The position numbers and the translations under genes were made by a program. Below the pieces are notes generated by a model. It was not told where the DNA came from, did no database searches, and saw only the letters and a program-made list of their open reading frames with translations. From Mycobacterium sp. EPa45 (lineage in GTDB: Bacteria > Actinomycetota > Actinomycetes > Mycobacteriales > Mycobacteriaceae), in the NCBI RefSeq assembly GCF_001021385.1, contig NZ_CP011773.1, forward strand, positions 2,108,001-2,172,000: a DNA stretch of 64,000 bases, in the 5' to 3' direction. Below are positions 296 to 50,368 of this stretch, one piece after another (within the stretch, counting starts at the first letter, position 1; every line of letters begins with the position of its first letter).

Positions 296-2085
296 GCGGC
301 GACATCACCGACCCGCACGTGTTGCGGGAGTATGCATTGCTTGCCGACGGGCACCGTGGTGCGCTGATCGGCCCGCGCGGCGAAATCAGCTGGATGTGCG
401 CTCCCCGTTGGGACAGCGACGCTGTCTTCGCGGCGTTGATCGGAGGCAACGGTGCCTTCGCGATCACGCCGCGGGGGCGGTTCGTTTGGGGCGGGCACTA
501 TGAAGACGGCAGCCTGATTTGGCGTTCTCGCTGGGTCACCACCGACGGGATCACCGAGTGCCGGGAGGCGCTCGCATACCCCGGCGACCCGCATCGCCTC
601 GTCCTGATGCGCAGGATCATCGCGGCGCGCGGCGACGCCTGCGTGACAATGACATTCGCGCCCGCCAGCGGATTCGGGCGGCACGGTATGACCGAGGTGG
701 TCCGTGATGACCACGGAGTCTGGCATGCCGAGTGTGGGCCGTTACTCATCACGTTGCACGGCGCCCCACACGCCACGATCACCCATGACGACGCCGGTGT
801 CGTCGCATTGCGGTGTGACCTCAAGCTGGTGGAGGGCCGGCACCACGACATCGTTGTCGAGGTGTCCGACCGGCCCAGCTGCGGGCCATTGCCCACCCCG
901 GACGCGCTGTGGCTTGCCACCGAAAATGCTTGGGAGTCAGTACTTCCCATGTTCGACGGCAGCAGCGCAGCTCGCGACGCGCGGCATTCGTATGCGGTAT
1001 TGCGCGGCATGACCAGTCCGGGCGGCGGCATGGTGGCCGCGGCGACAATGAGTCTGCCCGAGCGCGCCGAGCAACGCCGCAACTACGACTACCGCTACGT
1101 GTGGATCCGCGACCAGTGCTATGCCGGACAGGCCGTCGCGCTCGACGGGCCACACGGCGTGCTCGGCGACGCGGTCGCTTTCGTGACTGACCGGCTCCTC
1201 GCCGATGGTCCCGACCTCAAGCCCGCCTACCGCGTCAACGGCGCAGCGGTACCCGACGAATGCTCACTGCGGCTACCCGGCTATCCCGGAGGCAGTGACA
1301 TGCTGGGCAACCACGCGCACAGTCAATTCCAGCTCGACGTCTTCGGGGAAGCGCTGTTGCTATTCGCCGCGGCGGCACGCCATGACCACCTCGGCGGTGA
1401 CGGTTACCGGGCTGCGGCTGCGGCGGCATCGGCGATCGCGGATCGCTGGCGGGAACCCGACGCCGGCGTGTGGGAGCTCGAGACCCGGCATTGGACGCAC
1501 TCGCGGCTCACCTGTGTCGCCGGCCTGCGGGCGATCGCCACTCATGCCCCAGCCCACGATGCCGCTGACTTCCAGTCTTTGGCCGATGCCATCCTCGCCG
1601 CGAGTGCCGACTGCGTGCACCCCAGCGGTCGGTGGCAACGCGCCCCCGACGACATGCGAGTCGACGCTGCGCTGCTCGTCCCGGCACTACGCGGTGCCGT
1701 GGCGCACGACGACCCACGTACCACCGCGACCTTGCGCGCCGTGCTCGACGAACTCGAAGACGACGGATTCGTCTACCGCTTCCACCACGACGGCCAGTCC
1801 CTCGCCGAAGCCGAAGGCGCCTTCCTGCTGTGCGGGTTCTGGGCCTCCCTGGCCTGCCGCCAGCAAGGTGACATGGTCGGCGCCGCGCGCTATTTCGAGC
1901 GCAACCGCGCTGCGTGCGGACCACCCGGATTGTTCGGGGAGGAGTACGACGTCGAGCAGCGTCAGATCCGGGGAAACATCCCGCAGGCTTTCGTGCACGC
2001 CCTTCTCATCGAATCGTCACTGTGCGTGGCAACGCCGCCGCATGAGCTCACCCATTCGCCCGTAAACAGGAAGGAACCGTCATGA
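292..2085 (+). CDS. Glycoside hydrolase family 15 (glucoamylase/trehalase-like)
   Basis: Cytoplasmic 597-residue protein of the GH15 (alpha/alpha)6-barrel type, which hydrolyses alpha-glucosidic bonds from chain ends or trehalose. The N-terminal part has the usual '[18 protein letters not shown]' type opening, the middle has [10 protein letters not shown], typical of GH15, and [13 protein letters not shown], where the catalytic acid region sits. The C-terminal GEEYD and [10 protein letters not shown] blocks carry the expected catalytic base and closing motif. Length is typical. It overlaps both neighbours by ATGA, so it is the second gene of a long operon. The substrate cannot be told from sequence; mycobacterial GH15 enzymes include a trehalase, but this looks like a separate accessory copy. 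Confidence 0.85.
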
Positions 2086-3101
2086 CCAGTACTTCGCCAC
2101 GCGTCGTGGTCGTCACCGGAGCCAGCGCCGGGATCGGACGCGCCGCCGCGAAGGCGTTCGGACAGCGTGGCGACCGCGTCGCGCTGCTGGCCCGCGGACG
2201 CGCCGGGCTACAGGGCGCCGTCGACGACGTCGAGGCGGGGGGTGGGACGGCGCTAGCCCTGCCCACCGACGTGGCGGACTTCAAGCAGGTCGACGCCGCT
2301 GCCACCACGGTCGAGGAGACCTTCGGGCCGATCGACGTCTGGGTCAACGTCGCGTTCACGTCGGTGTTCGCTCCGTTCACCGAGATCGAGCCTGACGAGT
2401 TCCGCCGCGTCACCGAAGTCAGCTACCTCGGGTTCGTCTACGGCACCATGGCCGCACTGGCCCGCATGCGGCCGCGCGACGCGGGGACAGTTGTGCAGGT
2501 GGGTTCCGCCCTGGGTGCCCGTGCCATTCCGCTGCAGTCCGCGTATTGCGGCGCGAAACACGGAATCAACGGATTCACCGAATCGGTGCGCACGGAATTG
2601 CTGCACAATTGCAGCAACGTCCACATCACTGTCGTGCAGATGCCGGCGGTCAACACTCCACAATTCAGCTGGGTGCTGTCGCGGCTGCCACGCCACCCGC
2701 AACCCGTGCCACCCATCTATCAGCCCGAGGTTGCGGCCCGCTCGATCGTGCGTGCCGCCGAGCATCCCCGTCGCAAGCAGTACTGGGTCGGCGCAAGCAC
2801 CGCGGCGACCGTGCTCGGGCAGCGCCTGATGCCGTCCGTGCTCGACCGCTACCTGGCGCGCACCGGCTACTCCTCGCAGCAGACCGGCGAGCCCGTCGGC
2901 GCGGATCGGCCGAACAATCTGTGGGAGCCCCTTGACGACCAAGTCGGCACCGACCACGGTGCTCACGGGTCGTTCGATGACCGATCCATCAGCCGTTCGC
3001 CGCAGGTGTGGCTGTCGCGGCACGTCCGATCGCTGTCTGCCGCTGCTGCGGGCACCGTGCTGACTGCCGGCGGAGCCGCCCTGGCCCGCTACCGCCACTG
3101 A
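2082..3101 (+). CDS. SDR family oxidoreductase with C-terminal hydrophobic tail
   Basis: Short-chain dehydrogenase/reductase of 339 residues. The Rossmann motif TGASAGIG lies at about residues 13-20 and the Ser-Tyr-Lys site is seen as the Ser of VGSALGAR followed by SAYCGAKHG. The usual structural NNAG motif is replaced by NVAF (in [10 protein letters not shown]). The family core is about 250 residues; the extra C-terminus ends in a hydrophobic Ala/Gly-rich stretch and a basic end, which could associate with the membrane. Its ATG overlaps the GH15 stop. Substrate unknown; operon context suggests a sugar-derived alcohol or ketone. Confidence 0.85.
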
Positions 3102-3154
3102 CCAGAATTTGCGCACCGATATCCAAGGCCTGACAACACTTGTGAAGGAGTGAC

Positions 3155-4954
3155 ATGTCCGACACCGTCGCTGACGTCCTACTCGCCCGTTTACGGGAGT
3201 GGGGTGTGAAACAAGTCTTCGGGTTCCCTGGAGACGGCATCAACGGGCTGCTGGCCGCGTGGGAACGGGCAGATGACAAGCCCCAGTTCGTGCAGGCGCG
3301 TCACGAAGAGATGGCCGCGTTCGAAGCGGTCGGCTTCGCCAAGTTCTCTGGCCAGGTCGGCGTTTGCGTGGCCACCAGCGGGCCGGGTGCGGTGCACCTG
3401 CTCAATGGGTTGTACGACGCCAAACTCGACCACGTTCCCGTGGTCGCGATCGTCGGCCAGACCGAACGCTCCGCGATGGGCGGCTCCTACCAGCAGGAGA
3501 TCGACCTGCTCAGTCTGTTCAAGGACGTCTGCAGTGACTACGTGCAGATGTGCACAGTGCCCAAGCAGTTGCCGAACCTGATCGATCGTGCCATCCGCGT
3601 TGCCCTCAGCGAGGGCGCGCCCACGGCGATCATCGTGCCCTCCGACGTCTTCGAGCTGACCTACGAACCGCCGGGTCACGCGTTCAAACAGGTGCCGTCC
3701 AGCCTGGGGATGTCACAGGCGCGCGCGGTGCCCGACGATGACGCGTTGCGCAGAACGGCCGATCTGCTCAACGCCGGTCAGAAGGTGGCCATGCTCGTGG
3801 GGCAGGGCGCGCGCGGATGCGCTGACGAACTGACCGAAGTTGCCGACCTGCTCGGTGCTGGCGCGGCAAAAGCGTTGTTGGGCAAGGATGTTCTGTCCGA
3901 CGAACTGCCGTGGGTGACGGGCTCGATCGGACTTCTCGGCACCACCGCCAGCTGGCACTTGATGCAGGACTGCGACACCCTGCTCACCGTCGGCTCGAAC
4001 TTCCCCTACACCCAGTTCATGCCCGAACTCGACCAGGCACGCGCCGTGCAGATCGACCGGTCCGGCAAATGGATCGGGATGCGCTATCCCTACGAAATCA
4101 ATCTCGTCGGCGATGCCAAGAGCACGCTGCGGGCATTGATCCCGTTGTTGGAGCGCAAGACCGACCGGTCCTGGCGGGAGAAGATCGAGAAGTGGGTGGT
4201 GAGTTGGTGGACCACCGTGCAGCGCAGGGCCATGACCGACGCCGACCCGGTGAATCCGATGCGGATTTTCTGGGAACTGTCCGAACGGATGCCTGACAAC
4301 GCCATCATCGCCGCCGACTCGGGCTCCTCGGCCAATTGGTACGCGCGGCACCTGAAGTTTCGCGGCGACGTCCGCGGCTCGCTGTCCGGCACGCTCGCCA
4401 CGATGGGCCCCGGGGTACCGTATGTCATCGGCGCCAAGTGGGCACACCCCGACCGGCCCACCATCGCCTTCGTCGGCGACGGCGCGATGCAAATGAACGG
4501 TCTCAGCGAACTCATCACCGTCAGCAGGTACTGGAAGCAGTGGACCGACCCTCGCCTGATCATCGCGATCCTGCACAACAATGATCTCAACCAGGTCACC
4601 TGGGAGATGCGGGCGATGGAGAACTCACCGAAATTCGAAGCGTCGCAGAACCTTCCAGATGTCGACTTCGCCGGATTCGCCCGCAGCCTCGGGCTGCACG
4701 GCGACAACATCGACGACCCGTCGATGCTCGGCGATGCATGGGACCGCGCCTTGGCCGCAGACCGGCCAACGGTGCTGGACGTCCGCTGTGATCCGAACGT
4801 GCCACCGATTCCGCCACACGCCACCTTCGACCAGGCGAAGTCTCTGGTGGCCGCGGTCGTCGGTGGCGACGACGACAGTGCCGACTTCATTAGGCAGGGA
4901 ATCAAACAAAAAGTGCAGCAATACTTTCCAGGTGAGAAGAAGGGCCGTTCATGA
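3155..4954 (+). CDS. Thiamine pyrophosphate enzyme, pyruvate oxidase/acetolactate synthase-like
   Basis: A 599-residue protein with the three-domain TPP-enzyme plan. The N-terminal Pyr domain has FGFPGDGINGL and the catalytic glutamate of ARHEEMAAF (Glu51). The C-terminal PP domain has the TPP/Mg2+ motif starting GDGAMQMNG and ending in HNNDLNQV. It resembles quinone-dependent pyruvate dehydrogenase (PoxB) more than acetolactate synthase, so it probably decarboxylates a 2-oxo acid. SD-like GAAGGAG lies just before the ATG. The stop overlaps the next gene by ATGA. Exact substrate is inferred only. Confidence 0.82.
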   Translation: MSDTVADVLLARLREWGVKQVFGFPGDGINGLLAAWERADDKPQFVQARHEEMAAFEAVGFAKFSGQVGVCVATSGPGAVHLLNGLYDAKLDHVPVVAIVGQTERSAMGGSYQQEIDLLSLFKDVCSDYVQMCTVPKQLPNLIDRAIRVALSEGAPTAIIVPSDVFELTYEPPGHAFKQVPSSLGMSQARAVPDDDALRRTADLLNAGQKVAMLVGQGARGCADELTEVADLLGAGAAKALLGKDVLSDELPWVTGSIGLLGTTASWHLMQDCDTLLTVGSNFPYTQFMPELDQARAVQIDRSGKWIGMRYPYEINLVGDAKSTLRALIPLLERKTDRSWREKIEKWVVSWWTTVQRRAMTDADPVNPMRIFWELSERMPDNAIIAADSGSSANWYARHLKFRGDVRGSLSGTLATMGPGVPYVIGAKWAHPDRPTIAFVGDGAMQMNGLSELITVSRYWKQWTDPRLIIAILHNNDLNQVTWEMRAMENSPKFEASQNLPDVDFAGFARSLGLHGDNIDDPSMLGDAWDRALAADRPTVLDVRCDPNVPPIPPHATFDQAKSLVAAVVGGDDDSADFIRQGIKQKVQQYFPGEKKGRS

Positions 4955-38817: not shown

Positions 38818-38850
38818 TCAAAGGCGGGACGGTATGCGCGCGCGGGGCGC

Positions 38851-39357
38851 ATGATGACTCGCATGGGACGAGTTGCCATACCGCGGTCGTTGTCGCGTTG
38901 TTGGGGCGGATTGATAAAGACACTTCCAGTTGTCGCAGTCGCTGCTCTCAGCGTGTCCTTCGCTGGCTCGGTGCACGCCGATATCACGCCGTACGTGAAG
39001 CTGCCCGGAATGGCCGTTTGTCAGGTCGATCTGGATAGCGTTGTTTGCGAGAGTAATTGGCCCCAAGCGCCGGTGACGTCATGCCCGCAGTGCCCGGACG
39101 TGATGCACATGGATCAGGCCGTGGTCGACGCCATGGGCAACCTCATCTGGCGTGACGCCAATATCGGTGATCCCGAGACGGCCGGTCCGGGTTGGTTCGA
39201 ACTGACGGCATCTCAGCCGTATCGCGGCTATGGCTGGACGGGCGAAATTAATCCTTCGGGTCGTGTCACATTCGGCAATGACTTGACTGGTCACGGTCTT
39301 GAAATAACCTGGGTCGTGGACCGTGATGCGAGCCATGCCGAGATCAGCACGTTCTGA
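38851..39357 (+). CDS. Secreted protein, unknown function
   Basis: A 168-residue exported protein. Basic N-terminus, hydrophobic run LPVVAVAALSVSFAG and cleavage site near SVHA before DITPYVK. The mature part has five cysteines (CQVDLDSVVC, CPQC), suggesting disulfides, and the tail GHGLEITWVVDRDASHAEIS. First gene of the island, where GC drops. ATG at 38851, 38854 and 38863 are all possible starts. No family recognised. Confidence 0.65.
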   Translation: MMTRMGRVAIPRSLSRCWGGLIKTLPVVAVAALSVSFAGSVHADITPYVKLPGMAVCQVDLDSVVCESNWPQAPVTSCPQCPDVMHMDQAVVDAMGNLIWRDANIGDPETAGPGWFELTASQPYRGYGWTGEINPSGRVTFGNDLTGHGLEITWVVDRDASHAEISTF

Positions 39358-39383
39358 AACGGGTTCGAAGAATCACGATGGCT

Positions 39384-39647
39384 ATGATCGGCGACCAGAA
39401 GGCGTTGGTTCGGCGCCGTTCATGAGCTGCGACCCCATTCGTCGGCGAAGGGCGTCGGTGGAGTCCGGAACTTTTCACAACGCTCAAAGCTAACCCCGGC
39501 AGCACCCGCAGTTGTCTTCGAGCTAACCGATTCGAAATCGACCCGAGCCCTTTCAAGGTCAAACATATTGCCGGGCAGACACTCTCAGTGTTCGAGGCGG
39601 GCGAAGTCGCCCTTGAGCTACGGGAGGCCCAGCGCGCTGTCGCCTAA
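39384..39647 (+). pseudogene. Possible decayed gene, interrupted by TGA
   Basis: A frame from ATG 39384 runs 13 codons (MIGDQKALVRRRS), hits TGA at 39423-39425, then continues 73 codons to TAA at 39645. The second part looks protein-like (RFEIDPSPFKVKHIAG, LSVFEAGEVALELREAQRAVA) and has no start codon except an internal GTG. A single-codon interruption of a short gene is the simplest reading; family not recognised and coding nature unproven. Confidence 0.3.
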
Positions 39648-39808
39648 GGCAAAAGTCGCTGCCGGGAACCACACTGGTTTACCTTGCTTTAATTGCACTT
39701 TTGACACCGAAGCGACTTGTTCGGTGACAGACTTGCGGCCGACATATGGTTGTCGGTCAATGGACTTCGACGGTGCAGAGTTGCCGAGGCCGGCGGGGAG
39801 GAGTTTAT
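39648..39808. other. Intergenic, low-GC, no gene seen
   Basis: With the preceding remnant this makes a 451-base stretch (39358-39808) between two exported proteins lacking any intact gene. The composition is visibly less GC-rich than the backbone. A short AT-rich run CCTTGCTTTAATTGCACTTTTGAC could include a promoter for the following lipoprotein. No tRNA, repeat or att site is visible. Confidence 0.4.
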
Positions 39809-40507
39809 GTGAGACCACGTCAGTACTTCATGATCAGCGTTGTGGTGACTGCTATTACGGCGGTCGCGGCATGCGGTTCCAGCAGCAGTCCACCCGCACC
39901 AGTTGAAACCAACAATCCGATGCCGGTTTCAGTGGGCTCTAGCAGTACGTTGCCAGCATCGGTCACCACCGTTAGTTCGTTGTCAACCCCAACCAGTGCT
40001 GCCGCCGCGGGCACCGGGGAGGTTCGGTTGGGTTGCGGGACTCACTGCCAAACTGCCGGCGGTTACGGCGCACCGACGGTTCCTGGAATGCTGGACGTTG
40101 TAAGAATCAAGAGCGGCACGGTAAGTCTCGATGCCGACGGATACGTGCCGGTTACCGTCACGTGTCTGATTCCTGCCACTTGCCGGGGTATTCTCCTGAT
40201 CGACCTGACTGGCTACACGGAACCTCCGTCTACAACGCGCGTTGAGTATGCGGGTCGTTCCGACTTGTTGGTAGAAGCCAATTCCGTTCAAACGATTGGG
40301 GTACCGCTCACTGCCGGCGCAGAGGCGTTTGTACGAGCAAACAGCCCGGTGACTGCCCACGTGCATGGCGATGCCCAAGCCACGGTGGACTGCTCTGCAA
40401 TCCCACAGCTGGCCGCGCACTGCGCCACGACCGTCGCGGCCGATTCGCGTGCAGGTGACGGTCTTGAGCGGTTGTTCGGCGAGGAACTCCAGCTGAACGC
40501 GATGTAA
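39809..40507 (+). CDS. Lipoprotein, unknown function
   Basis: A 232-residue surface lipoprotein. GTG at 39809, preceded by GGGGAGGAG, gives VRPRQYFMISVVV, a hydrophobic signal and lipobox AVAACG, then a Ser/Thr/Pro-rich linker. The mature domain has cysteine pairs (RLGCGTHCQTAGG; VTCLIPATCRG; VDCSAIPQLAAHC) and beta-rich segments. Upstream of the CHASE2-TIR gene on the same strand, with 193 bases between. Family not recognised. Confidence 0.65.
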   Translation: MRPRQYFMISVVVTAITAVAACGSSSSPPAPVETNNPMPVSVGSSSTLPASVTTVSSLSTPTSAAAAGTGEVRLGCGTHCQTAGGYGAPTVPGMLDVVRIKSGTVSLDADGYVPVTVTCLIPATCRGILLIDLTGYTEPPSTTRVEYAGRSDLLVEANSVQTIGVPLTAGAEAFVRANSPVTAHVHGDAQATVDCSAIPQLAAHCATTVAADSRAGDGLERLFGEELQLNAM

Positions 40508-40700
40508 CTGCGGTGGGTATGTGGACCAGGCAGGCGTTTTCGGACCATGAGTGGTCTCTTTCGCTTCTGCCGGACTGGAGGCAATTGGCGTTGACTGGGC
40601 GCAGCGATTCGCCAAGCGCAGCGCAGATATCCGTGGACCATCGGAATCGGCAGTCCCGTAACAGGATTTGGGTCGAATTGGGCTTTCGGTGGGAATCAAC

Positions 40701-42350
40701 GTGATTGGGGGTGACCCCGACTCCAAGAGCGCAGCAGCCAGCTGGCGATTCCGTCGTTTCGCCATACGCCACGTGCTAGTCGTCGGCGTTGCAGTTGTCG
40801 TCGCCGGCCTGATGGCTGCGCTCTACAGCATGAGCGGGTTACAGCACTGGGAGCGAACCAGTATCGATACCCGATTCTGGGTGCGAGGCCCCCAGTCACC
40901 CGGACAAGATGTCGTGATCATCGGCATCGATCAAAAGTCGTTGACAGCGCTGAACGTACAGCTACCGATTCCGCGGGCGGACTACGCCAGGGTGCTGGAC
41001 CGACTTCACGAGGCTGGACCCCGGGTCGTCGCGATCGACACCCAATTCATCGGAAGCTCGGGACCAGACGATGACCGGATGCTGCTCGCTGCGATCGCCA
41101 GAGATGGTCCGGTGGTATTGGCCACTCACGAAGGTGATCAGGGGCCGATCCCAGTGCCCGCAGGCGTTGACGATGCGCAGGGCGCGTTACCTGCAAGTGC
41201 TGCGATCGACAAAGATCCTGACGGCGTCCTGCGGAGAATGTTGTTTGCGCCAGTGCAACTTCCAACGCTGGCAGTGCGTACTGCAGAGATCTTCAAGGGA
41301 AGCGCAGTCCCACCCTTCTCCCACGAATGGATTGACTTTCGCGGCGGTGCAGGAACTTTCCCTCACTACTCATTCACGGACGTGATGGCGGGCATCGTGC
41401 CGCCGGCCGCTTTTGCCGGGAAGGCGGTGTTGATCGGCAGTACCGATCCTGTGAACGACATGTTCGTAACCTCGATCTCGTCGGTGCCAATGCCCGGTGT
41501 CGAGATCCAGGCCAACGCCCTCTGGACGTTGCTCGCGGGAGTTCCTCTGCGATCGGTGGCCGCACTGGTCGACCTCCTGTTGATCCTCATCGCTATTGCG
41601 ATCCCGACCGTCATCGGTGCTCGGGTGCCAGCGCTCTATAGCTTCGGCGCTGCGCTAGCTACTGCCCTCGGATTTCTATTCGGGGCGCAATTCGCCTTCG
41701 ATCGCGGATGGATCGTGTCGGTCGCGTACCCGCTCGTAGCTTTGGCCATCGCAACGGCGGGCGTGATCGCGGTGGATTCGTATATGGAGCGCCGCCAGCG
41801 TAAGGCACTCGAGAGTGCCCTCGGCGATCTTCTTCCTCCGCAGACGCCGCCTGCATTCTTCTTGAGCTACCGGCGCAGCCAAAGCGCTTGGCACGCCCGC
41901 GATATCAAGCGTGAACTGGTGAACCGCTTTGGCCCGTCCAGTGTGTTCATGGATAGATCATCTATTGAATACGGGGAAACATTTCCGGCCCGGATCCAAG
42001 ATGCGATTCGCGGATGCAGCGTCATGTTGGTGCTTATCGGACCGAATTGGCTTGAGAGTGTGGATGGCAACCGGCGCATCGACGATCCGAACGACTGGGT
42101 GCGACGCGAAGTTGAGGCCGGGCTTCAGCGCCAAGAGGCAGTCGTTGTACCCACATTGTTAGAGGATGCAGTGAACTTGGTTGCTGAGCAGTTACCGGAG
42201 TCGATTGCCGCGTTGGCTTCGCTACACGCTGTCACGCTAACCGGCGACGATCTCGACGTGGAAATCGATAAATTGGTGCGGTCCATCCAGCGTGGACGAA
42301 GTCGCAATCGCGGTCCGACTGACGAAGCGGACGCCGGCCAGCGAAACTGA
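40701..42350 (+). CDS. CHASE2 sensor - transmembrane - TIR protein
   Basis: About 549 residues (GTG 40701; GTG 40689 and TTG 40668 possible). One N-terminal membrane helix (about 24-43), an extracytoplasmic CHASE2 domain (about 50-280, with DVVIIGIDQKSL, VVAIDTQFIG, DGVLRRM and AGKAVLIGST), three more helices (about 287-358), then a cytoplasmic TIR domain (384-500): FFLSYRRSQSAWHA, VFMDRSSIEYGETF and WVRREVEAGL with the conserved Glu near 470. TIR domains cleave NAD+ or make cyclic ADP-ribose-type signals; CHASE2 senses external cues. No kinase or cyclase follows, so TIR is the output. In the TIR/RyR island. Confidence 0.88.
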   Translation: MIGGDPDSKSAAASWRFRRFAIRHVLVVGVAVVVAGLMAALYSMSGLQHWERTSIDTRFWVRGPQSPGQDVVIIGIDQKSLTALNVQLPIPRADYARVLDRLHEAGPRVVAIDTQFIGSSGPDDDRMLLAAIARDGPVVLATHEGDQGPIPVPAGVDDAQGALPASAAIDKDPDGVLRRMLFAPVQLPTLAVRTAEIFKGSAVPPFSHEWIDFRGGAGTFPHYSFTDVMAGIVPPAAFAGKAVLIGSTDPVNDMFVTSISSVPMPGVEIQANALWTLLAGVPLRSVAALVDLLLILIAIAIPTVIGARVPALYSFGAALATALGFLFGAQFAFDRGWIVSVAYPLVALAIATAGVIAVDSYMERRQRKALESALGDLLPPQTPPAFFLSYRRSQSAWHARDIKRELVNRFGPSSVFMDRSSIEYGETFPARIQDAIRGCSVMLVLIGPNWLESVDGNRRIDDPNDWVRREVEAGLQRQEAVVVPTLLEDAVNLVAEQLPESIAALASLHAVTLTGDDLDVEIDKLVRSIQRGRSRNRGPTDEADAGQRN

Positions 42351-42406
42351 TCACGGCAAATGCGGCGTCGCTGCTCGTTCATTGGCAGGACCTGAAGTCA
42401 GGCCAC

Positions 42407-42556
42407 TCAGAGCGTACGGCGCGAATACCGTCGTTTGCGTCCGAGCCGGCGTCTGACCGCAACGGGGTCTTTCGCGGCTCGGCCGGTGCCTCGCCGCTTG
42501 TGCGACTTACACATTGCGCAGCCACGCCACGAACGTGATGGATGGTGGTTGGGCAT
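42407..42556 (-). CDS. Small basic CxxC protein
   Basis: A 49-residue frame with SD GGGAG six bases before the ATG. WRGCAMCKSHKRRG has a CxxC followed by a basic, Arg/Lys-rich tail (RRRLGRKRRYSRR), like small actinobacterial proteins with one CxxC and an Arg-rich end, often of unknown role. It may bind nucleic acid or zinc. Shorter than usual gene cut-offs, placed between CHASE2-TIR and the patatin gene, on the same strand as the latter. Confidence 0.5.
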   Translation of the reverse strand: MPNHHPSRSWRGCAMCKSHKRRGTGRAAKDPVAVRRRLGRKRRYSRRTL

Positions 42557-42665
42557 AGTTGCTCCCAGAAGACTCCGCCAGAGGGCGAAGAGGACAACGA
42601 TACCTCCCGAAGGGACGCGATGCCTAATGGCATTCTTTGCCGTCAGCCTCGGTGAAGGAGCGATG

Positions 42666-43670
42666 TCATCGAAACCGGTCGCGATAGTCCTGCCAGTCCC
42701 AGCGAGACAAAAACTCTTCAGCGGCCGCATAACCGCTTGCATAGAGGGTTTCGATTTCAATTTTCGAAGCATCGAAGTCGAGAACGCTGAGGCCGGATGA
42801 TCGGACTTGGATGGTGCGCGCACTGACCCAGGGTTGTTCGAGATAAGCCTGATCGCGGCCGGACAGCATCGTCATGATCATCCGTTCCAGCAGCGGCGGC
42901 GCACCTAAACCGAACGCGGACAGCGCACGTGTGAGCCTGTCGCCGCCGGCAGCATTGCTGGGCATCACTGTGATCCCGAACGTGGGCCAGCGTGGTTTTC
43001 TGCCGTCGGTGCGGTCCAGCGAATCAATCGGGAAGTTCGACAGCAATCCGCCATCGACCAGCGTCGAGGTGAGCCGGGTGGCACTCCTTAATGACACTGG
43101 CCGAAAAAAGAAAGGTATCGACATCGAGGCGCGAACCGCATCGGCGACATAATGCTCGTCCGGGTCGTGTCCGTAGATCTGCCGGTAATCCCAGGGCAAC
43201 CGAACCAGTCGTTCTCTCGTCAGGTCGGCCACGGTGACCACGAGGGCATAGCGGCGTTCCTCGGCGAGCGTCTCATCCTCGATGGCGAGGTCGCCAAATT
43301 TCGTGACACCCAGATTCTTCAGTTCACCGCGAATCCACTGATGGGCGTAGTCGCCCCGGTAGATTCCATCGCCGCGCATCAGTGCTAGAGCCGAACCGAC
43401 GAACGGGACACGCTGAGCGCGTCCGCGGTCCAAGATCTTGCGGTAGTCGATCCCAAGCGCGATGTCTTTGAGTTGCTTGCCGGTCACTGCCCCGCGCCTG
43501 GTGGCCGCCGCCAAGACTGCCCCGATAATCGAGCCGGCAGAGGTGCCCGACACGCGCTGTGCGCGGTAGCCGGCGTCGACCAGTCCTGCGACCGCCCCCG
43601 CCAGCCCCACGCCCTTGACGCCACCGCCTGACAACACGAAATCGGCGTCGGTTCTCGCTTCCGGAGTCAT
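42666..43670 (-). CDS. Patatin-like phospholipase
   Basis: A 334-residue patatin-family hydrolase. Oxyanion loop GGGVKG at residues 15-20, nucleophile GTSAG with Ser44, and catalytic Asp206 in DGG are intact, so it is probably active on membrane lipids. ATG at 43670 is preferred; GTG at 43697 is possible. Convergent with the CHASE2-TIR gene and divergent from the RyR gene. Patatins are also known effectors in bacterial defence systems; here that is inference from neighbours. Confidence 0.85.
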   Translation of the reverse strand: MTPEARTDADFVLSGGGVKGVGLAGAVAGLVDAGYRAQRVSGTSAGSIIGAVLAAATRRGAVTGKQLKDIALGIDYRKILDRGRAQRVPFVGSALALMRGDGIYRGDYAHQWIRGELKNLGVTKFGDLAIEDETLAEERRYALVVTVADLTRERLVRLPWDYRQIYGHDPDEHYVADAVRASMSIPFFFRPVSLRSATRLTSTLVDGGLLSNFPIDSLDRTDGRKPRWPTFGITVMPSNAAGGDRLTRALSAFGLGAPPLLERMIMTMLSGRDQAYLEQPWVSARTIQVRSSGLSVLDFDASKIEIETLYASGYAAAEEFLSRWDWQDYRDRFR

Positions 43671-43935
43671 GCGGTACCTCGTCTCGACTGCCGACACGGT
43701 GACCCTCGTGGCCGTGTCAAAGGACTGCGCTCATTTCACCAGCCCGCCGTACGCAGAGTCGGCATTCGACCGACATCGGAGTCGACTGGTTCTGTGACGA
43801 CTTGAGCGTTGGACGACCGCGAATCGTCGAGACTCCATGAACACTACTGCTATTGCGTCGCAACCGAATAGCCAGTCGCGCGTGTGCAGCCGACGGCGGA
43901 ATGGGCGTCACCCTCTCGCGTGCTTCGTTACAGTG

Positions 43936-44406
43936 ATGCGGGTGGGTCGCGACCGTCAGTCTGTTGAAGTCATAGCGCGCGCAATCCATGAGCGTTGGCG
44001 TGTGGAGCAGCGCTCGGCCGGTGTCGTTGCGCCGCCTGCTTGGAATGAGCTGGATGAGTCGCGTCGAGACTCTAGCCGCGCTCATGCTCGCGACATCGCG
44101 ACGAAACTTGAGCTAATCGGATGCGCGATCGCACCGCTAACCGATGCGGATGCCCGAGACTTCAAGTTCACCGATGACGAGGTGAAATATCTCGGCATCC
44201 ACGAGCATGACCGTTGGGTCAAGGAGCGGGTGGCGGCCGGCTGGACGGCGGGGCCCAAGGACACCGCCGGTAAGACGACGCCGTATTTGGTGCCCTTCGA
44301 CGAGCTCCCGGCAGACATCGCCGAGTACGACCTGCTGCTCGTCCGCGAAATCCCCAATTTGCTCGCTGCCGCGGGAATGCGGGTCGTGCGCGTAAACCCC
44401 GGCTGA
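43936..44406 (+). CDS. Stand-alone RyR-domain protein
   Basis: About 156 residues if started at ATG 43936 (ATG 43837 also in frame; the added residues do not look conserved). Two halves of the ryanodine-receptor repeat fold are seen: IARAIHERW with PPAWNELDESRRDSSRAHARDIATKL, and IHEHDRWVKERVAAGW with TTPYLVPFDELP and EYD. It aligns closely with the C-terminal RyR part of the next gene, so the two domains are paralogous. RyR domains in bacteria are proposed to bind nucleotides. Function unproven. Confidence 0.78.
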   Translation: MRVGRDRQSVEVIARAIHERWRVEQRSAGVVAPPAWNELDESRRDSSRAHARDIATKLELIGCAIAPLTDADARDFKFTDDEVKYLGIHEHDRWVKERVAAGWTAGPKDTAGKTTPYLVPFDELPADIAEYDLLLVREIPNLLAAAGMRVVRVNPG

Positions 44407-44508
44407 ATCGCGCAACAGGATCACGATGCCGGTGAGATGATCTCACCGATGAGTGCCTAGCCTGCGGTCCGTCGGGGGAGCTCTCACCACGGCGCGAGAC
44501 GGAGAACC

Positions 44509-46482
44509 ATGGCGAACTCCATGACACAAGCGACGGATTCCGCCGCCATGCCTAGCCGCGGTACGTCTACCATCGAATGGCCCGAAGGTTCGCGCGTGCG
44601 GCGCCTCCGTGAGTTGCGCTGGGCCGACCTGCGTTGGGAAATCCTCTTGGTCCTCGCCGTGGCGGCCCTGGTCTGTGGCTACCTCGGGTATCGCCAGTAT
44701 TACGCGGCCCTTCCTCCTGGAGAGCCACCCAGCCGCTGGACGGACTACCTTTACCACGGCCTCGGACTTTTTGCGCCCGGTGCCGGACCGGAGCGGCCGG
44801 GGTTGCCGGTCCTGCTCGACATCGCCCGCTTTCTGTCACCCGCTGTGGCCGGATACGCCGCGCTGACTGCCCTCACGGCGCTCTTTCGGGATCGGGCGCA
44901 ACAGATCCGCATTCCGTTCATGACGAATCACATCGTGGTGTGCGGTCTTGGATACGTTGCAGATGTATTCATCCACCACCTGCGTGAGGATGTAGCACCC
45001 AAGGGGGACAGGATTGCGACATACCTGGACAAGGCGTTTCGGCGTAATCCCAGGCGGTTGTCCCGCGCCGTGGTCGTCGTCGAGCTCGATCCGACAAACC
45101 CGCTGATCGATAAGTGCCGCCGACGGGGCGTAGCGGTGATCATCGGCGACGCGCAGTCGGAACGCACCTTGCGCGCCGCCGGACTCAGACATGCGTCGCA
45201 CTTGCTGGCGGTCACCGACCAAGACGCGGTCAATGCCCAGATCGTTGCGATCGCCCGCGATATGGCTCGCGGTCGGCATCGACGGGTGCTGAATTGCCTG
45301 GCTCGGATCAACAATCCGGATCTGTGCGCTCTCTTACGAGTGCGGGAGCTGACGCGGGAGCTCACCACATCCAGCGACCATTCCGCGCAGCAGTCGCATG
45401 ACAGTGCGTCGACTCTGCACTATTTCAATCCTGATGAGACTGCTGCGCGAATGTGGCTCGACGAGTGTCCCTTCATCGGAATCAACACTATGATTCCGCA
45501 CCTGCTGGTCAGTCGGCTGGATCAGCTCGGCACCTGGTTGGTCCGGACTGCAGCACGCATGTGGTACGACTCGAATCCGAGCACTCCATTGTGGATCACG
45601 GTCGTCGACGAGGACGGGGAGAAGCGCGTCGCCGACCTCACGAGTCGCCATCCGGAATTGGAGCATGTCTGTCGGTTCTCTCCGCCCATCCGGGCGACCG
45701 CTCGTGACCTGCGACAGCTATCGGTGCGGCACACCGAAGATGGTGTGCCGCCACTGACACGGGCATACGTGACTGCCCCGCGTGACGAGATCGCAGCCGA
45801 AGAGGCGTTGAACCTGCGTCAGCTCCTTGATTCGCGGATTCCGGTGACCGTCGCACTATCGCGGACACACGGCGTGGCGAACCTTGTCAAAGACGCCCAC
45901 AGAACAGGCTTGGACATCGAGGTCTTTCTCACCCTGGAGCAGATCTGTACGAAAGAACTCATTGAGGGCGGATCGTTCGAACCCATCGCGAAGGCCTTAC
46001 ACGAACGCTGGCGGGACATGGAATGCAAACCGGAGAAGCCAGACCCGCCTACATGGGATGAGCTCGACGACTCGCGGCGTAGATCCAACTTCAATCATGC
46101 CCGCGATATCAAAGCCAAGCTCCACGAGATGAAATGCGTTGTGACACCGCTCAGTGACTGGAAAGCAACAGATTTCGCCTTCACGGCGAACGAGATCGAG
46201 ACGTTGGCCCGGCAGGAACACGAACGATGGAATGCGGATCGCTTGGGCGATGGCTGGCAGCTCGCGGCGACAAAGGACCCGGATCGGAAGCTCACGCCAT
46301 ACTTGGTCTCATTCAACGAACTCCAACAGAAGTTTCCCGAGATCGCCGAGTACGACCGCAATTTCGCCCGTGACTTGCCCGCGGTTCTGGCCTCGGTTGG
46401 ATTGCAGATCAAGCGGCTCGATCTTTCAGCTGATGCATCCTCGACCGACGGTGAAGCCTTCGACAGCGCGGCTCACGCCTGA
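44509..46482 (+). CDS. Two-TM channel-like protein with TrkA-N (NAD-binding) and RyR domains
   Basis: A 657-residue protein. Two membrane helices (about 44-64 and 101-126) flank a pore-like loop WTDYLYHGLGLF. A TrkA-N Rossmann domain starts with HIVVCGLGYVADVFIHHL (141-158) and has VVVVELDP and VAVIIGDAQSERTLRAAG. A middle region follows and a RyR domain ends it (about 495-635: ALHERWRDME, ARQEHERWNADRLGDGW, LTPYLVSFNEL). It looks like a 2-TM cation-channel subunit gated by NAD(H) or another nucleotide through TrkA-N and RyR. No selectivity filter is clear, so the channel role is inferred. Its stop lies 5 bases before the first tandem TIR gene. Confidence 0.8.
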   Translation: MANSMTQATDSAAMPSRGTSTIEWPEGSRVRRLRELRWADLRWEILLVLAVAALVCGYLGYRQYYAALPPGEPPSRWTDYLYHGLGLFAPGAGPERPGLPVLLDIARFLSPAVAGYAALTALTALFRDRAQQIRIPFMTNHIVVCGLGYVADVFIHHLREDVAPKGDRIATYLDKAFRRNPRRLSRAVVVVELDPTNPLIDKCRRRGVAVIIGDAQSERTLRAAGLRHASHLLAVTDQDAVNAQIVAIARDMARGRHRRVLNCLARINNPDLCALLRVRELTRELTTSSDHSAQQSHDSASTLHYFNPDETAARMWLDECPFIGINTMIPHLLVSRLDQLGTWLVRTAARMWYDSNPSTPLWITVVDEDGEKRVADLTSRHPELEHVCRFSPPIRATARDLRQLSVRHTEDGVPPLTRAYVTAPRDEIAAEEALNLRQLLDSRIPVTVALSRTHGVANLVKDAHRTGLDIEVFLTLEQICTKELIEGGSFEPIAKALHERWRDMECKPEKPDPPTWDELDDSRRRSNFNHARDIKAKLHEMKCVVTPLSDWKATDFAFTANEIETLARQEHERWNADRLGDGWQLAATKDPDRKLTPYLVSFNELQQKFPEIAEYDRNFARDLPAVLASVGLQIKRLDLSADASSTDGEAFDSAAHA

Positions 46483-46487
46483 AGGCG

Positions 46488-47636
46488 GTGCGGGCTATGG
46501 CGCATGATGTGTTCATCAGTCATTCGTCGGTGGATAAGCCTGCGGCTGACGCTGTTTGCGCGGCGCTCGAGGCGAAGGGGGTTCGTTGCTGGATCGCTCC
46601 GCGTGATATCAAACCGTCGGAGAGTTGGGCGGCCGCGATCGTCGCCGCGATTCGCGGCGCACAGATAATTCTGTTGGTTTTCAGCCAGAATGCGCATGAC
46701 TCGGAGCAGGTTCGACGGGAAGTCGAGCTCGCGGCGAGCGCGGCCAAACAGATTCTCGTTCTGTGCGTTGAGGATTCGATCAGCCACCGAGCGCTTACAG
46801 TGTCGACCCCGCATTGGCTCGATGCCGCCACTCCACCCTTCGAGGCACACTTGGAGAAGCTCGTCGTCCAGTGCCGGAGGCTGCTGGGGCGGCCCGATCG
46901 AGGACCGGCATGGCGCGACGAGCGCCGGCAGGTCAAGATTGCGTCGATCGCCGTCGTGATCGTCATTTTGGGCGTCGGTGTCGGTGTCGCCGAGGGGTTT
47001 TGGCGCTCCTCGCCGCCTCGGAGTGCTTCTCAAAGCGAGCTGTCGACAACGACACTGGTTCCCACTACATCTGCAACCCAATCCGTGGGTGTCGAGCCTC
47101 GTGCACAAATCGTTCAGCTGACCGGTTCATGGTCCGACGACGGGTTTCACAGGGCCGTTCGCGACCGCGACATCAACATAGTGAACCTCTACCTGCAGTC
47201 CGGCATGAGGGCGACGACTCTCTTCGACGGCGCGAGTGTCATTCTCTACGGCTTTCAAGGCCTCCCGCAGAATGGCGATCCCGTCGAATTGTTGAAGACG
47301 TTTCAAGCGGCAGGCTTTCACGTCGACGAGCAGTTGGAGGACAGCTATCTCATGGAAAAGCTGTCCAACGCTGGACCTAGGTCTATGCTTCCGATGCCGT
47401 TCAAATCGCCTCTGGCGCCGAAAGGATACGACGGTGGTAACGGAGGCCGATTCGTCGGGTCATTGTTGTTTTGGATTGTCCAACGCTCGACTTGGGTCGG
47501 CACAGATGAGGACAACGGCGTGATGAAGTATCTGGTCGACCAGGGTGCGGATTGCAAGGTTCCACTGGCGTTCCTCGACTTCCACAATATGGTCGACCTG
47601 CCTCAGTATCAGTTGATGAAGAGTTGCGCCAAGTGA
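46488..47636 (+). CDS. TIR - transmembrane - ankyrin-like protein (copy 1)
   Basis: A 382-residue protein (GTG 46488; ATG 46497 possible). TIR domain at about 6-130: DVFISHSSVDKPAADA, CWIAPRDIKPSESWAAAI, and QVRREVELA with the conserved Glu78. A single membrane helix at about 150-170, a Ser/Thr/Pro linker, then an ankyrin-like C-terminal domain outside the membrane (FHRAVRDRDINIVNLYLQSGM; VMKYLVDQGADCK) with two cysteines. The TIR part would be cytoplasmic and the C-terminus extracytoplasmic. Next gene is its close paralogue. Confidence 0.82.
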   Translation: MRAMAHDVFISHSSVDKPAADAVCAALEAKGVRCWIAPRDIKPSESWAAAIVAAIRGAQIILLVFSQNAHDSEQVRREVELAASAAKQILVLCVEDSISHRALTVSTPHWLDAATPPFEAHLEKLVVQCRRLLGRPDRGPAWRDERRQVKIASIAVVIVILGVGVGVAEGFWRSSPPRSASQSELSTTTLVPTTSATQSVGVEPRAQIVQLTGSWSDDGFHRAVRDRDINIVNLYLQSGMRATTLFDGASVILYGFQGLPQNGDPVELLKTFQAAGFHVDEQLEDSYLMEKLSNAGPRSMLPMPFKSPLAPKGYDGGNGGRFVGSLLFWIVQRSTWVGTDEDNGVMKYLVDQGADCKVPLAFLDFHNMVDLPQYQLMKSCAK

Positions 47637-47660
47637 TGACCCCCGACAGTTCTCAAGGCG

Positions 47661-48914
47661 GTGCGGGCGTTGGCACATGACGTGTTCATCAGTCATTCTT
47701 CGGTAGATAAGCCCGCGGCCGATGCCGTATGCGCGGCGCTCGAAGCGAAAGGTATTCGTTGCTGGATTGCGCCGCGAGATGTCAAGCCGTCGCAGAGTTG
47801 GGCGGCCGCGATCGTAGCCGCGATCCGAGAGGCGCGCATTTTCCTGTTGGTGTTCAGCCGAAATGCCAACGAGTCGGACCAGGTCCAGCGGGAGGTCGAG
47901 CGGGCAGCGAATTCGGGCAAGCAGCTCCTGACCCTGCGGATCGAGGATGTCGCGCCTGAGGCTGCGCTTGAGTATTACTTGAATACGCCACACTGGCTAG
48001 ACGCAATCACGCCGCCGTTCGAAGCACACCTGGAGAAGCTTGCCGATGCCTGCGTAAGCCTGTTGGCGTGGCTCGATTCCGCCGATGATGCGTCGGCTGC
48101 CGGTGGCGGACAGGTGGGCGGGGCGGGCTCCCGTAGGCAGTCGAAATTCACTGCCGACCGGCCACCCGTGCGGTGGTGGCATCGGCAACGTCGATCGGTG
48201 AAGGTGGCGCTGATTTCGCTAGCAGTCGTGATGGTGGCCGCCGTCGCGACTCTCGCCGGGCAGGCGGTGGGAACATCTCGGCAACACAACGCCACGCCGA
48301 GCATCAGTTCGGCGCCGCCGGCCACCACGGTCATTCAGGCAGCGCCGCTGCCACCCTCCCCGGTGAACACCGATCCGCGCGCGCAGATCGTCCAGCTCAC
48401 CGGATCCTGGTCTGTTGATGGGTTTGTGAGTGCCATCGTCGATCGCGACACCCGCCTCGTCGCTTTGTATTTGCAGTCAGGCCTCAAAGCGACAACTCTG
48501 CAGAACGGTGCCAGTGCGATCCTCTTCGGATTCCAAGGTGTCTCCCAGAACGGCGATCCTGTCGAACTGGTCAAGACGTTTCAGGCGAGTGGATACAAGG
48601 TCGATGACGAACTACGCGACAGTTATCTTCTGCCGAAACTAGGGCAGAACCCGGTGATCTTCGATTCGCCGTTGACCCCGAAGGGTTACGAGGGTGGGCA
48701 GGGCGGCACATTCGTTGGCTCATTGCTGTTTTGGATTATTGAGCGTGCGAGCTGGAACGGCGTGTCCGACCAAGATAGCCAGGTCGTCGAATACCTGATC
48801 AGCCAGGGTGCGGACTGCAAAGTGCCCCTAGCCTTCCTCGGCACCGTCAACTACCTGTCCGATTCCGATGTGTACAAAAAGATGCATCCTGTCTTGCAGA
48901 GCTGTGGGAAGTGA
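47661..48914 (+). CDS. TIR - transmembrane - ankyrin-like protein (copy 2)
   Basis: A 417-residue tandem paralogue of the preceding gene: DVFISHSSVDKPAADA, CWIAPRDVKPSQSWAAAI, QVQREVERA (Glu78). Differences are a longer Gly-rich juxtamembrane stretch and a helix at about 181-201. The C-terminal part again has VDRDTRLVALYLQSG, GASAILFGFQGVSQNGDPVEL and SQGADCK with a late cysteine. The DNA around both starts is nearly identical (including GGCGGTGCGGGC), so a recent tandem duplication followed by divergence of the linker is likely. Confidence 0.82.
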   Translation: MRALAHDVFISHSSVDKPAADAVCAALEAKGIRCWIAPRDVKPSQSWAAAIVAAIREARIFLLVFSRNANESDQVQREVERAANSGKQLLTLRIEDVAPEAALEYYLNTPHWLDAITPPFEAHLEKLADACVSLLAWLDSADDASAAGGGQVGGAGSRRQSKFTADRPPVRWWHRQRRSVKVALISLAVVMVAAVATLAGQAVGTSRQHNATPSISSAPPATTVIQAAPLPPSPVNTDPRAQIVQLTGSWSVDGFVSAIVDRDTRLVALYLQSGLKATTLQNGASAILFGFQGVSQNGDPVELVKTFQASGYKVDDELRDSYLLPKLGQNPVIFDSPLTPKGYEGGQGGTFVGSLLFWIIERASWNGVSDQDSQVVEYLISQGADCKVPLAFLGTVNYLSDSDVYKKMHPVLQSCGK

Positions 48915-48970
48915 CCGATTCCGATCGCATGCACCCCTTCCCAGGACTGGTCGGGAACGCGGCTGTGGGT

Positions 48971-49231
48971 CTAGGTTGCGCGGGGCCGTTTCAACAGGAA
49001 CACCACCGATAGGGAATGGCCCACCGTCATCTTCGCGTCGAGAAGAACGTTGAAATTCACGACTTCCCAGCCCTGGTCGCCGAAACCTGCCAACGCGGGC
49101 ATGGCGGCTTGAAGTACCGCTCCTACGTCCCGGCCAATTGGCGTCGCGTGGTAGTGGTATTCCCAACGAGGTGGATACCAATTTCCATCCGAGGCCTTCC
49201 ACCAGCCGGTCCCGGGTGGAGTGTCGGTCAT
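48971..49231 (-). CDS. Small protein with GWWKASDGNWYPP motif and DUF4177-like end
   Basis: An 86-residue protein. ATG at 49231 gives MTDTPPGTGWWKASDGNWYPPR, the tryptophan-rich motif common in actinobacterial membrane-linked proteins. The remainder WEYHYHATPIGRDVG and GDQGWEVVNFNV with VVFLLKRP resembles the small beta-alpha DUF4177-type fold. The frame extends upstream but without conserved residues. Convergent with the second TIR gene. Confidence 0.65.
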   Translation of the reverse strand: MTDTPPGTGWWKASDGNWYPPRWEYHYHATPIGRDVGAVLQAAMPALAGFGDQGWEVVNFNVLLDAKMTVGHSLSVVFLLKRPRAT

Positions 49232-49288
49232 GGTGTAGATGGTAGACGTGACCGGGTCGGCATTCGCCAGTATCTCCGGACTCAATTT

Positions 49289-49492
49289 GTGGCGACAACG
49301 GGTTTGGCGACGCAGAGGAAAGGAAAGGAGGCGAGGAGAAGAAACTTTGCGATCTATCGAGCGCGAAGCGAAAGCGGCGAAGACGGCTTTTTTGCCCGTC
49401 GCCTTTTCCTCGGCTGCTTGGCTTTGGCGCTCCTGGTCACCGTGATCGTGACGACGATAAGCAGACGGAGTAACGCGCACTTAAGGCTGTGA
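49289..49492 (+). CDS. Candidate small membrane protein
   Basis: A 67-residue frame from GTG 49289 with a basic N-terminal half (RKGKEARRRNF) and a clear hydrophobic helix LFLGCLALALLVTVIVTTI followed by basic residues, as in single-span membrane peptides. No good ribosome-binding site is seen and another frame over the same bases is also open, so this is tentative. The rest of the gap to 49721 holds nothing recognisable. Confidence 0.28.
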   Translation: MATTGLATQRKGKEARRRNFAIYRARSESGEDGFFARRLFLGCLALALLVTVIVTTISRRSNAHLRL

Positions 49493-49721
49493 ACCTGCTG
49501 TGAATTCGTGCTCGATTTTTTCGAAAGCGTCGGGCTGTGTTTCGTTCCTGTGCTATCAGTAATCCGATTTGTTGCTTTGCTTTCGCATTTCCGGATCGAG
49601 CTCAGATGCGGGCTGTTCGACACCACATCGTGCGTCGAAGGTCACCTCGACGGTGTTCCGCCGCACGGCCATATCACAGATCGACCGACAGTCTCATCGC
49701 TCGGCCGCAGGGGAGGGCTAC

Positions 49722-50315
49722 GTGAGCCAAGGACCGCAGGGTGACGGCTGGTGGCAGGCTTCGGACGGAAAGTGGTACCCGCCCGAGGACCATCCGCAGT
49801 ATCTGGAGTCGCTGCCACCGCCGCCTGCGACGGCGCTGTCGAACCGAGCATCCGCTGGTCCCGTCCGGCTAAGCGACGCCGAGCGCGCCCGAATCCTCAC
49901 ACAGGAGTTGGCCTTCCTCACAGCTCCGACGGGGGGCCGCGGAACTGTCGGTCCCGGAGGGCAAGTCACGTTCTACAACACGGGCCCCAAACTGAAGGAG
50001 CGGGGCAGGTTCTCGGCCGTCGTATGGACGGGAACCGACTATGCGCACTGGGCCTACATTCTGTTGCACGCCTTGTTTACTGTCATGACCTGCGGCCTCT
50101 ACCTACCGTTCTGGTGGTGGGGGTTGCGCAAGAAGCCAAAGGTCTACACCGTGGCCGTCGATGATTACGGCAATATCACCAAAACCCAGCACGAAGTATC
50201 AGCAGCCCAACGCATCCAACGCTGGGTCGTACTGGCTGTAACTTTATGGTGGCTCTACCAAGCTTTGATGCTGGTCAGCGCGTTTCAAAATGCGTCAGGC
50301 AACGGAACATATTAA
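49722..50315 (+). CDS. Membrane protein with GWWQASDGKWYPP motif
   Basis: A 197-residue protein. GTG at 49722 is preceded by GGGAGGG. The N-terminus DGWWQASDGKWYPPEDHP is the same tryptophan motif as in the protein 500 bases upstream on the other strand. Two hydrophobic helices follow: WAYILLHALFTVMTCGLYLPFWWWGL and VVLAVTLWWLYQALMLVSAF. The region between has beta-rich character. Last gene of the island. Family not firmly known. Confidence 0.7.
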   Translation: MSQGPQGDGWWQASDGKWYPPEDHPQYLESLPPPPATALSNRASAGPVRLSDAERARILTQELAFLTAPTGGRGTVGPGGQVTFYNTGPKLKERGRFSAVVWTGTDYAHWAYILLHALFTVMTCGLYLPFWWWGLRKKPKVYTVAVDDYGNITKTQHEVSAAQRIQRWVVLAVTLWWLYQALMLVSAFQNASGNGTY

Positions 50316-50368
50316 GGGCCAGCGTGTGCGTGGCAGGAAGCCTCTAAAGGGTCCGTAGAGAGGGAACC

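What the first reader, a model, noticed from the sequence alone, without database searches (positions are those of the whole stretch)
40701..48914. TIR-RyR-CHASE2 island: candidate undescribed nucleotide-signalling defence or stress system
Seen: within 8 kb are three TIR proteins (all membrane-anchored, all keeping the conserved Glu), two RyR-domain proteins, one of them fused to a two-TM/TrkA-N channel-like protein, a patatin phospholipase with intact catalytic residues and a small CxxC protein. Known: TIR domains hydrolyse NAD+ or make cyclic ADP-ribose-type messengers (as in Thoeris); RyR domains in bacteria are proposed nucleotide sensors in conflict systems; TrkA-N binds NAD(H); patatins are membrane-lipid effectors. 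Inference: CHASE2-TIR or the tandem TIRs detect an outside or envelope signal, produce a nucleotide, and RyR/TrkA-N gates a channel. RyR, channel-RyR, TIR and TIR genes are on the same strand (gaps 102, 5 and 24 bases), suggesting one transcript.
Basis: partly seen in the sequence, partly recalled or inferred. Interest (0 to 1): 0.88.

Follow-up and report, generated by a model that had tools for sequence, protein, structure and literature searches.

The report
Bacterial TIR and ryanodine-domain channel module
A bacterium, probably a mycobacterium, carries on an inserted stretch of DNA signal-making TIR receptors next to a channel-like protein that ends in the ligand-binding domain of animal ryanodine receptors; the pairing recurs in related bacteria, which suggests a bacterial counterpart of cADPR-gated channels that can now be tested.

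Summary
The gene inventory is real, one doubtful small ORF aside, and the module recurs. The window's genome has four TIR_2 and three RyR matches; each lies in one of two TIR+RyR loci. In 59 other genomes of the genus, 60 of 66 RyR matches have a TIR within 10 kb (about 0.7% expected). TIR is in 58 of 59 RyR-positive genomes and 5 of 20 RyR-negative ones tested. Of 51 intact channel-RyR loci from genome contigs, 34 hold a TIR and two others a TIR-like DUF4062 protein. The RyR protein is predicted as 2TM/pore-helix, tandem-RCK, with a Repeat12-like C-terminal module that keeps the histidine and tryptophan with which phage RyDEP contacts its ligand. Best reading: membrane TIR receptors make an ADP-ribose-type messenger that gates the RyR protein, as Thoeris does with ThsA. 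Linkage and conserved residues are shown, the fold predicted; signal, ligand, conduction and phenotype are inferred. Outside the genus only 3 of 11 RyR matches have a TIR within 10 kb. A key preprint on TIR systems could not be read.

The parts
38820..50360 (.). low-GC genomic island (about 11.5 kb) between mnmA and the PknH_C lipoprotein/Meth_synt_2 genes; edges approximate
   Evidence: GC mostly 0.57-0.65 against about 0.68; mnmA to Meth_synt_2 12,253 b here, about 0.7 kb in the nearest relatives
40668..42350 (+). CHASE2-TIR receptor: N-terminal TM, CHASE2, about three TM, C-terminal TIR
   Evidence: Pfam; hydropathy (five segments pass, one of them inside CHASE2); CHASE2-TIR near a channel-RyR also in L005
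42666..43697 (-). patatin phospholipase, probable optional second effector
   Evidence: Pfam; motifs; PADLOC phospholipase effector 2e-8; another patatin is in the second locus of the genome
43837..44406 (+). stand-alone RyR-domain protein (189 aa; RyDEP has 138)
   Evidence: Pfam; H124, W127, D165 kept, RyDEP H100 replaced by T148
44509..46482 (+). 2TM/pore-helix, RCK1, RCK2, RyR protein: predicted ligand-gated channel
   Evidence: Pfam; AF2 pLDDT 82; Foldseek/VIA to TrkA, CASTOR, DMI1, GsuK and RyR3 Repeat12; 47 of the 51 proteins found carry TrkA_N and RyR
44620..44883 (+). TM1 (res 38-66), pore helix (77-86), TM2 (101-125); no TVGYG filter
   Evidence: AF2 secondary structure; alignment
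45976..46419 (+). RyR (Repeat12-like) module of the channel; H571, W574, T596, D616
46488..47636 (+). TIR-TM-ankyrin-like receptor A
   Evidence: Pfam; TM 149-167; C-terminal family
47661..48914 (+). TIR-TM-ankyrin-like receptor B, tandem copy of A
   Evidence: Pfam; 79% DNA identity over 297 nt; AF2 of the C-terminal domain pLDDT 91.7, ankyrin-like

Best explanation
A receptor-enzyme / messenger / channel module that works like Thoeris. Membrane TIR proteins with probably extracytoplasmic domains (CHASE2 and ankyrin-like here; PknH_C or intracellular STAND-WD40 in relatives) are activated by an envelope or invasion cue and turn NAD+ into an ADP-ribose-type messenger, most likely a cADPR isomer. 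The messenger binds the RyR module at the C-terminus of a GsuK/CASTOR-like 2TM-RCK1-RCK2 protein and opens its pore; the ion flux stops growth or kills the cell, aborting infection. The stand-alone RyR protein tunes the signal by binding it or, less likely, cleaving it. The patatin is an optional second membrane effector. Shown: genes, linkage, conserved Glu, conserved RyR ligand residues. Predicted: fold and topology. Inferred: messenger, gating, ion, cue, outcome.
For: Own genome: 4 of 4 TIR_2 and 3 of 3 RyR matches lie in two loci. Genus: 60 of 66 RyR matches with TIR within 10 kb; TIR in 58/59 RyR-positive against 5/20 RyR-negative genomes. TIRs stand in four relative arrangements that change at least 11 times on the channel tree among the 37 rows with a TIR within 7 kb, so not one frozen synteny. 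In L052, L053 and L078 a DUF4062 protein (TIR-like NADase in PMC13174449) lies beside the RyR gene. RyDEP H75 and W78 are kept in 31/31 channels, D117 in 27/31 (N in 4). Fold: DMI1/CASTOR/GsuK-type RCKs plus RyR3 Repeat12. RyDEP cleaves 2'/3'cADPR and six of eight homologues bind them (preprint PMC13232231). STALD (the ThsA sensor domain, recalled) is over cut-off in 0 of 148 genus genomes (no positive control).
Against: No biochemistry on any of these proteins. Outside the genus only 3 of 11 RyR matches have TIR_2 within 10 kb, and 17 of 51 channel-RyR loci show no TIR; about half of these are Streptosporangiaceae, where the few neighbours scanned were metabolic. The pore has no K+ filter motif, and TM2 just misses a hydropathy threshold, so conduction is unproven. 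RyDEP H100 (phosphate contact) is T/S/N in 28 of 31 channels, so the ligand may differ. Many genus counts are one inherited locus type, so 60/66 are not independent events. PADLOC knows the TIRs only as partial ThsB-like matches.
Confidence: 0.6

Rival explanations
1. The RyR parts are off-switches (RyDEP-like hydrolase or sponge) and not gates; the TIRs' NADase activity is itself the effector.
For: RyDEP cleaves 2'/3'cADPR and two characterised phage homologues sequester them. The window's stand-alone RyR keeps H and D of the dyad.
Against: In 51 loci the RyR is fused to the channel part (the search was made with the channel, so this count is biased). RyDEP H100, one of the ligand residues that the paper calls required for cleavage, is replaced in 28 of 31 channels. 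None of eight tested phage homologues cleaved.
Confidence: 0.13
2. The RCK (TrkA_N) lobes sense NAD(H)/ADP/ATP changes caused by TIR NAD+ depletion; the RyR is structural or a secondary site.
For: TrkA_N binds dinucleotides (recalled); the closest folds include GsuK with NAD or ADP and TrkA with ATP-gamma-S.
Against: RyR residues H and W are invariant in 31 channels; RyR proteins without the channel part also sit near DUF4062 or TIR (L078, L075).
Confidence: 0.13
3. Same circuit, but for envelope or osmotic stress signalling and not anti-phage defence (overlaps with the best explanation in mechanism).
For: TIR partners carry sensor domains that look extracytoplasmic (PknH_C in 13 of 35 linked TIR genes; CHASE2 and ankyrin-like here), and RyR is in 60 of 148 genus genomes.
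Against: Island location, DUF4062 and STAND-WD40 partners, a patatin in the second locus close to PADLOC phospholipase effectors, and RyR matches in 171 of 50,697 phage records (weak, E up to 1) point to conflict.
Confidence: 0.25
4. Passive clustering of unrelated defence genes in one island.
For: Low-GC island in a site that also holds extra DNA in two relatives.
Against: Linkage far above chance in the genus and in differing arrangements.
Confidence: 0.03

Closest known systems
Thoeris (ThsB TIR + ThsA)
   Same: TIR enzyme with conserved Glu next to a separate protein carrying a domain that can bind ADPR-type signals
   Different: sensor is a RyR module on an RCK channel-like protein; TIRs are membrane proteins; no STALD in the window proteins scanned and none over cut-off in 148 genus genomes
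RyDEP, phage DyoEdafos gp78 (PMC13232231)
   Same: homologous RyR (Repeat12) domain; H75, W78 and mostly D117 kept
   Different: RyDEP is a stand-alone phage enzyme in a NARP1 operon; here cellular, mainly fused to a channel-like protein, H100 replaced by T
Animal ryanodine receptor
   Same: Repeat12 fold (human RyR3 R12 Foldseek E 3e-5) on a predicted channel; its link to cADPR is long debated (recalled)
   Different: the predicted pore and cytoplasmic parts here are of RCK-channel type
GsuK / MthK / CASTOR-DMI1 channels
   Different: no TVGYG filter; C-terminal RyR module; TIR neighbour
Swarozyc (DUF4062 TIR-like NADase, PMC13174449)
   Same: DUF4062 proteins sit beside RyR proteins in L052, L053, L078
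   Different: the window uses canonical TIRs; RyR and TrkA do not occur in that paper's text
CBASS patatin effectors
   Same: second-locus patatin matches PADLOC phospholipase effectors at 1.8e-46 (that these are CBASS effectors is recalled)
   Different: no CD-NTase among the island proteins scanned; window patatin only 2e-8

Membership tests
Thoeris | TIR domain with catalytic Glu | tested here: met
   Pfam; Glu in 47/47 covered hits
Thoeris | ThsA-type effector with SLOG/STALD sensor | tested here: not met
   none in the window proteins scanned; 0 of 148 genus genomes over cut-off, one weak match in G095; the 14 control genomes rang in 0, so no positive control
Thoeris | TIR makes cADPR-type signal and system protects from phage | not testable with these tools
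   needs enzymology and phage challenge
RyDEP / RyR-domain (PF02026) | RyR domain with ligand residues H75, W78, D117 | tested here: met
   31/31, 31/31, 27/31
RyDEP / RyR-domain (PF02026) | H100 phosphate contact, among the residues the paper calls required for cleavage | tested here: not met
   T in both window RyRs; T/S/N in 28 of 31 channels, H in 3
RyDEP / RyR-domain (PF02026) | NARP1 neighbours (Adps, Namat) | tested here: not met
   no phosphoribosyl enzyme among the island genes scanned
2TM-RCK channel (GsuK/CASTOR type) | 2TM, pore helix, tandem RCK fold | tested here: met
2TM-RCK channel (GsuK/CASTOR type) | K+ selectivity filter TVGYG | tested here: not met
   absent between TM1 and TM2 in the window and in the A1 consensus; CASTOR-type channels also lack it (recalled)
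CBASS | CD-NTase | tested here: not met
   no CD-NTase among the proteins scanned
Swarozyc | DUF4062 NADase | tested here: not met
   not in the window proteins scanned; beside RyR genes in L052, L053, L078

The most novel reading that the evidence does not exclude
A prokaryotic counterpart of the cADPR-ryanodine-receptor pathway: TIR-made cADPR isomers directly open an RCK channel through its RyR (Repeat12) module, as anti-phage immunity, and the Repeat12 of animal RyR calcium channels descends from such a bacterial or phage nucleotide-signal domain.
Probability: 0.35. Interest if true: 0.95.

Novelty: new variant of a known kind. Interest (0 to 1): 0.85.

Why it matters
If right, it adds a ligand-gated channel to the outputs of TIR signalling and gives a small bacterial protein on which the old question whether cADPR-type molecules act directly on a ryanodine-receptor domain can be tested. 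For mycobacterial phage work it names a concrete candidate immune system.
Full report
What is there. The region 40.7-48.9 kb holds a CHASE2-TIR, a patatin on the opposite strand, a small RyR protein, a TrkA_N-RyR protein and two tandem TIR proteins. RyR, channel, TIR A and TIR B follow each other on the + strand with gaps of 102, 5 and 24 bases. They lie in a low-GC stretch between mnmA and a PknH_C lipoprotein/Meth_synt_2 pair. The mnmA to Meth_synt_2 distance is 12,253 bases here and 688-4,697 in 17 same-genus relatives, 15 of them under 1.2 kb (a further same-genus relative, G008, had neither gene found; the 12 same-order relatives were not used). It is therefore an insertion of about 11.5 kb.

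RyR residues. A 2026 preprint (PMC13232231; I read parts 1 and 2 of 6 and passages) shows that RyDEP of mycobacteriophage DyoEdafos cleaves 2' and 3'cADPR with H75 and D117, that W78 and H100 contact the ligand, that six of eight tested homologues bind the signals and that none of the eight cleaves. I fetched RyDEP (L074) and aligned it. Of the 31 proteins in alignment A1 (31 of the 52 at hand: the window's and 30 of 51 found), H75 is kept in 31, W78 in 31, D117 in 27 (N in 4). H100 is T in 19, S in 7, N in 2, H in 3. This suits a binding module more than an enzyme.

TIR proteins. The Glu that matches the known catalytic position (aligned to solved TIRs) is present in 47 of 47 hits that cover it; the 48th is a 64-aa remnant in L004. 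TIR A and B have one TM after the TIR, with positive charges on the TIR side, and a C-terminal domain with two invariant cysteines, so that domain is probably outside the membrane (inference). It belongs to a family of at least 141 proteins (120 listed), many without a TIR and one fused to a trypsin-like domain (P0136); the few organism names shown are Mycobacterium. Its model (pLDDT 91.7) is ankyrin-like. CHASE2-TIR has five hydrophobic segments, one inside CHASE2. By shared contig lengths, relatives of the tandem TIRs and of the channel sit on the same contigs of 57,559, 26,637 and 15,527 bases in other assemblies (inference).

Recurrence in the own genome. RyR matches: three. TIR_2 matches: four. 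The third RyR is an 828-aa TM-TrkA_N-RyR protein (TrkA_N there below Pfam's cut-off) followed on the same strand by a TIR-nSTAND1-WD40 gene (1419 aa; its TIR_2 match is) and a patatin. Thus TIR + channel-RyR + patatin occur twice, with different proteins.

Recurrence in the genus. 60 of 148 genomes have RyR, G000 included. Leaving out G000, there are 66 RyR matches in 59 genomes: 60 have a TIR_2 within 10 kb and 52 within 5 kb; a random point would have one in 0.7% of cases by the TIR density of these same genomes. The six misses are G121 (28.9 kb away), G147 twice, G032, G041 and G089 (no TIR on that contig). Nearest TIRs within 10 kb are downstream on the same strand in 36, convergent in 16, divergent in 8. 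TIR_2 is in 58 of 59 RyR-positive genomes and in 5 of 20 RyR-negative ones (the 20 printed of 88 negatives, four of them under 90% complete); Fisher p about 4e-11, which ignores relatedness.

Recurrence elsewhere. One scan of genome contigs with the channel alignment gave 65 loci. Of these, 51 have an intact channel-RyR frame; 34 hold a TIR by my own iterated HMM and 30 have it within 5 kb (one of them, L004, by the 64-aa remnant). Pfam found TIR_2 in 35 of 35 TIR genes within 7 kb that had a called gene (seven further hits had none and were left out); 13 carry PknH_C. Of the 17 without TIR, L052 and L053 carry a DUF4062-NTPase protein; in others the few neighbours scanned were mostly metabolic. 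In a 56-row channel tree (quick method; L038_1 dropped) the arrangement of the TIR changes at least 18 times, 11 among the 37 rows with a TIR. In a phylum sample of 296 genomes, 15 have RyR, five of them in the genus; for the ten outside it, 3 of 11 RyR matches have TIR_2 within 10 kb (G347, G317, G162) and four of the ten genomes have no TIR_2. In one of these four (G217, L078) the gene just upstream is DUF4062-NTPase-WD40. Its RyR protein, and those of L075 and L076, do not match the channel HMM, so the RyR domain, more than the channel, looks like the shared element.

Mechanism. Shown: linkage, conserved catalytic and ligand residues. Predicted: fold, topology. From other work: TIRs make ADPR-type signals and RyR domains of phages bind or cleave 2'/3'cADPR; DUF4062 is a TIR-like NADase in defence (PMC13174449: start of abstract and passages). 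Inferred: the TIR product gates the RyR protein and flux stops the cell. STALD is over cut-off in none of 148 genus genomes (no positive control), so a different sensor for TIR signals would fit there. Defence is favoured over stress signalling but not shown.

Known or new. Open-library searches listed no TIR-RyR channel module. PMC8195603, PMC9503650 and PMC7159879 contain no RyR by word search. The RyDEP preprint shares an author (Sorek) with the TIR survey it cites; in the parts and passages I read it mentions no cellular RyR effector, and TrkA does not occur in its text. That survey itself is not held, so prior description cannot be excluded. I file it as a new variant of TIR nucleotide signalling: it works like Thoeris but fails the ThsA criterion.

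Noticed in passing
window 48971-49480 (-) and 49569-50315 (+): Two island proteins share a WWxASDGxWYPP motif (DUF2510-like, recalled) with no Pfam match at 0.01; L014's TIR protein matches DUF2510 below cut-off.
   Followed up: partly
window 46479-46775 and 47652-47948: The two TIR genes are a tandem duplication (79% over 297 nt).
   Followed up: yes
P0136 and alignment A4: The ankyrin-like C-terminal family of the tandem TIRs occurs in many proteins without a TIR and in one with a trypsin-like domain.
   Followed up: no
mnmA to Meth_synt_2 interval in G012 and G015: The same site is 4.7 kb and 3.3 kb wide in two relatives: a possible insertion hotspot.
   Followed up: no
L047, L052, L004, L077: AAA-type ATPases fused to RyR (L047, L052) or next to RyR genes (L004 IetA-like; L077).
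   Followed up: partly
L075: An IS481-type transposase lies between the TIR gene and the RyR gene.
   Followed up: no
phage records: 171 of 50,697 phage records have a match (E up to 1, weak) to the stand-alone RyR, among them Gordonia, Arthrobacter and Mycobacterium phages.
   Followed up: partly
window 39746-40507 (+): Lipoprotein-like island protein with no Pfam match.
   Followed up: no
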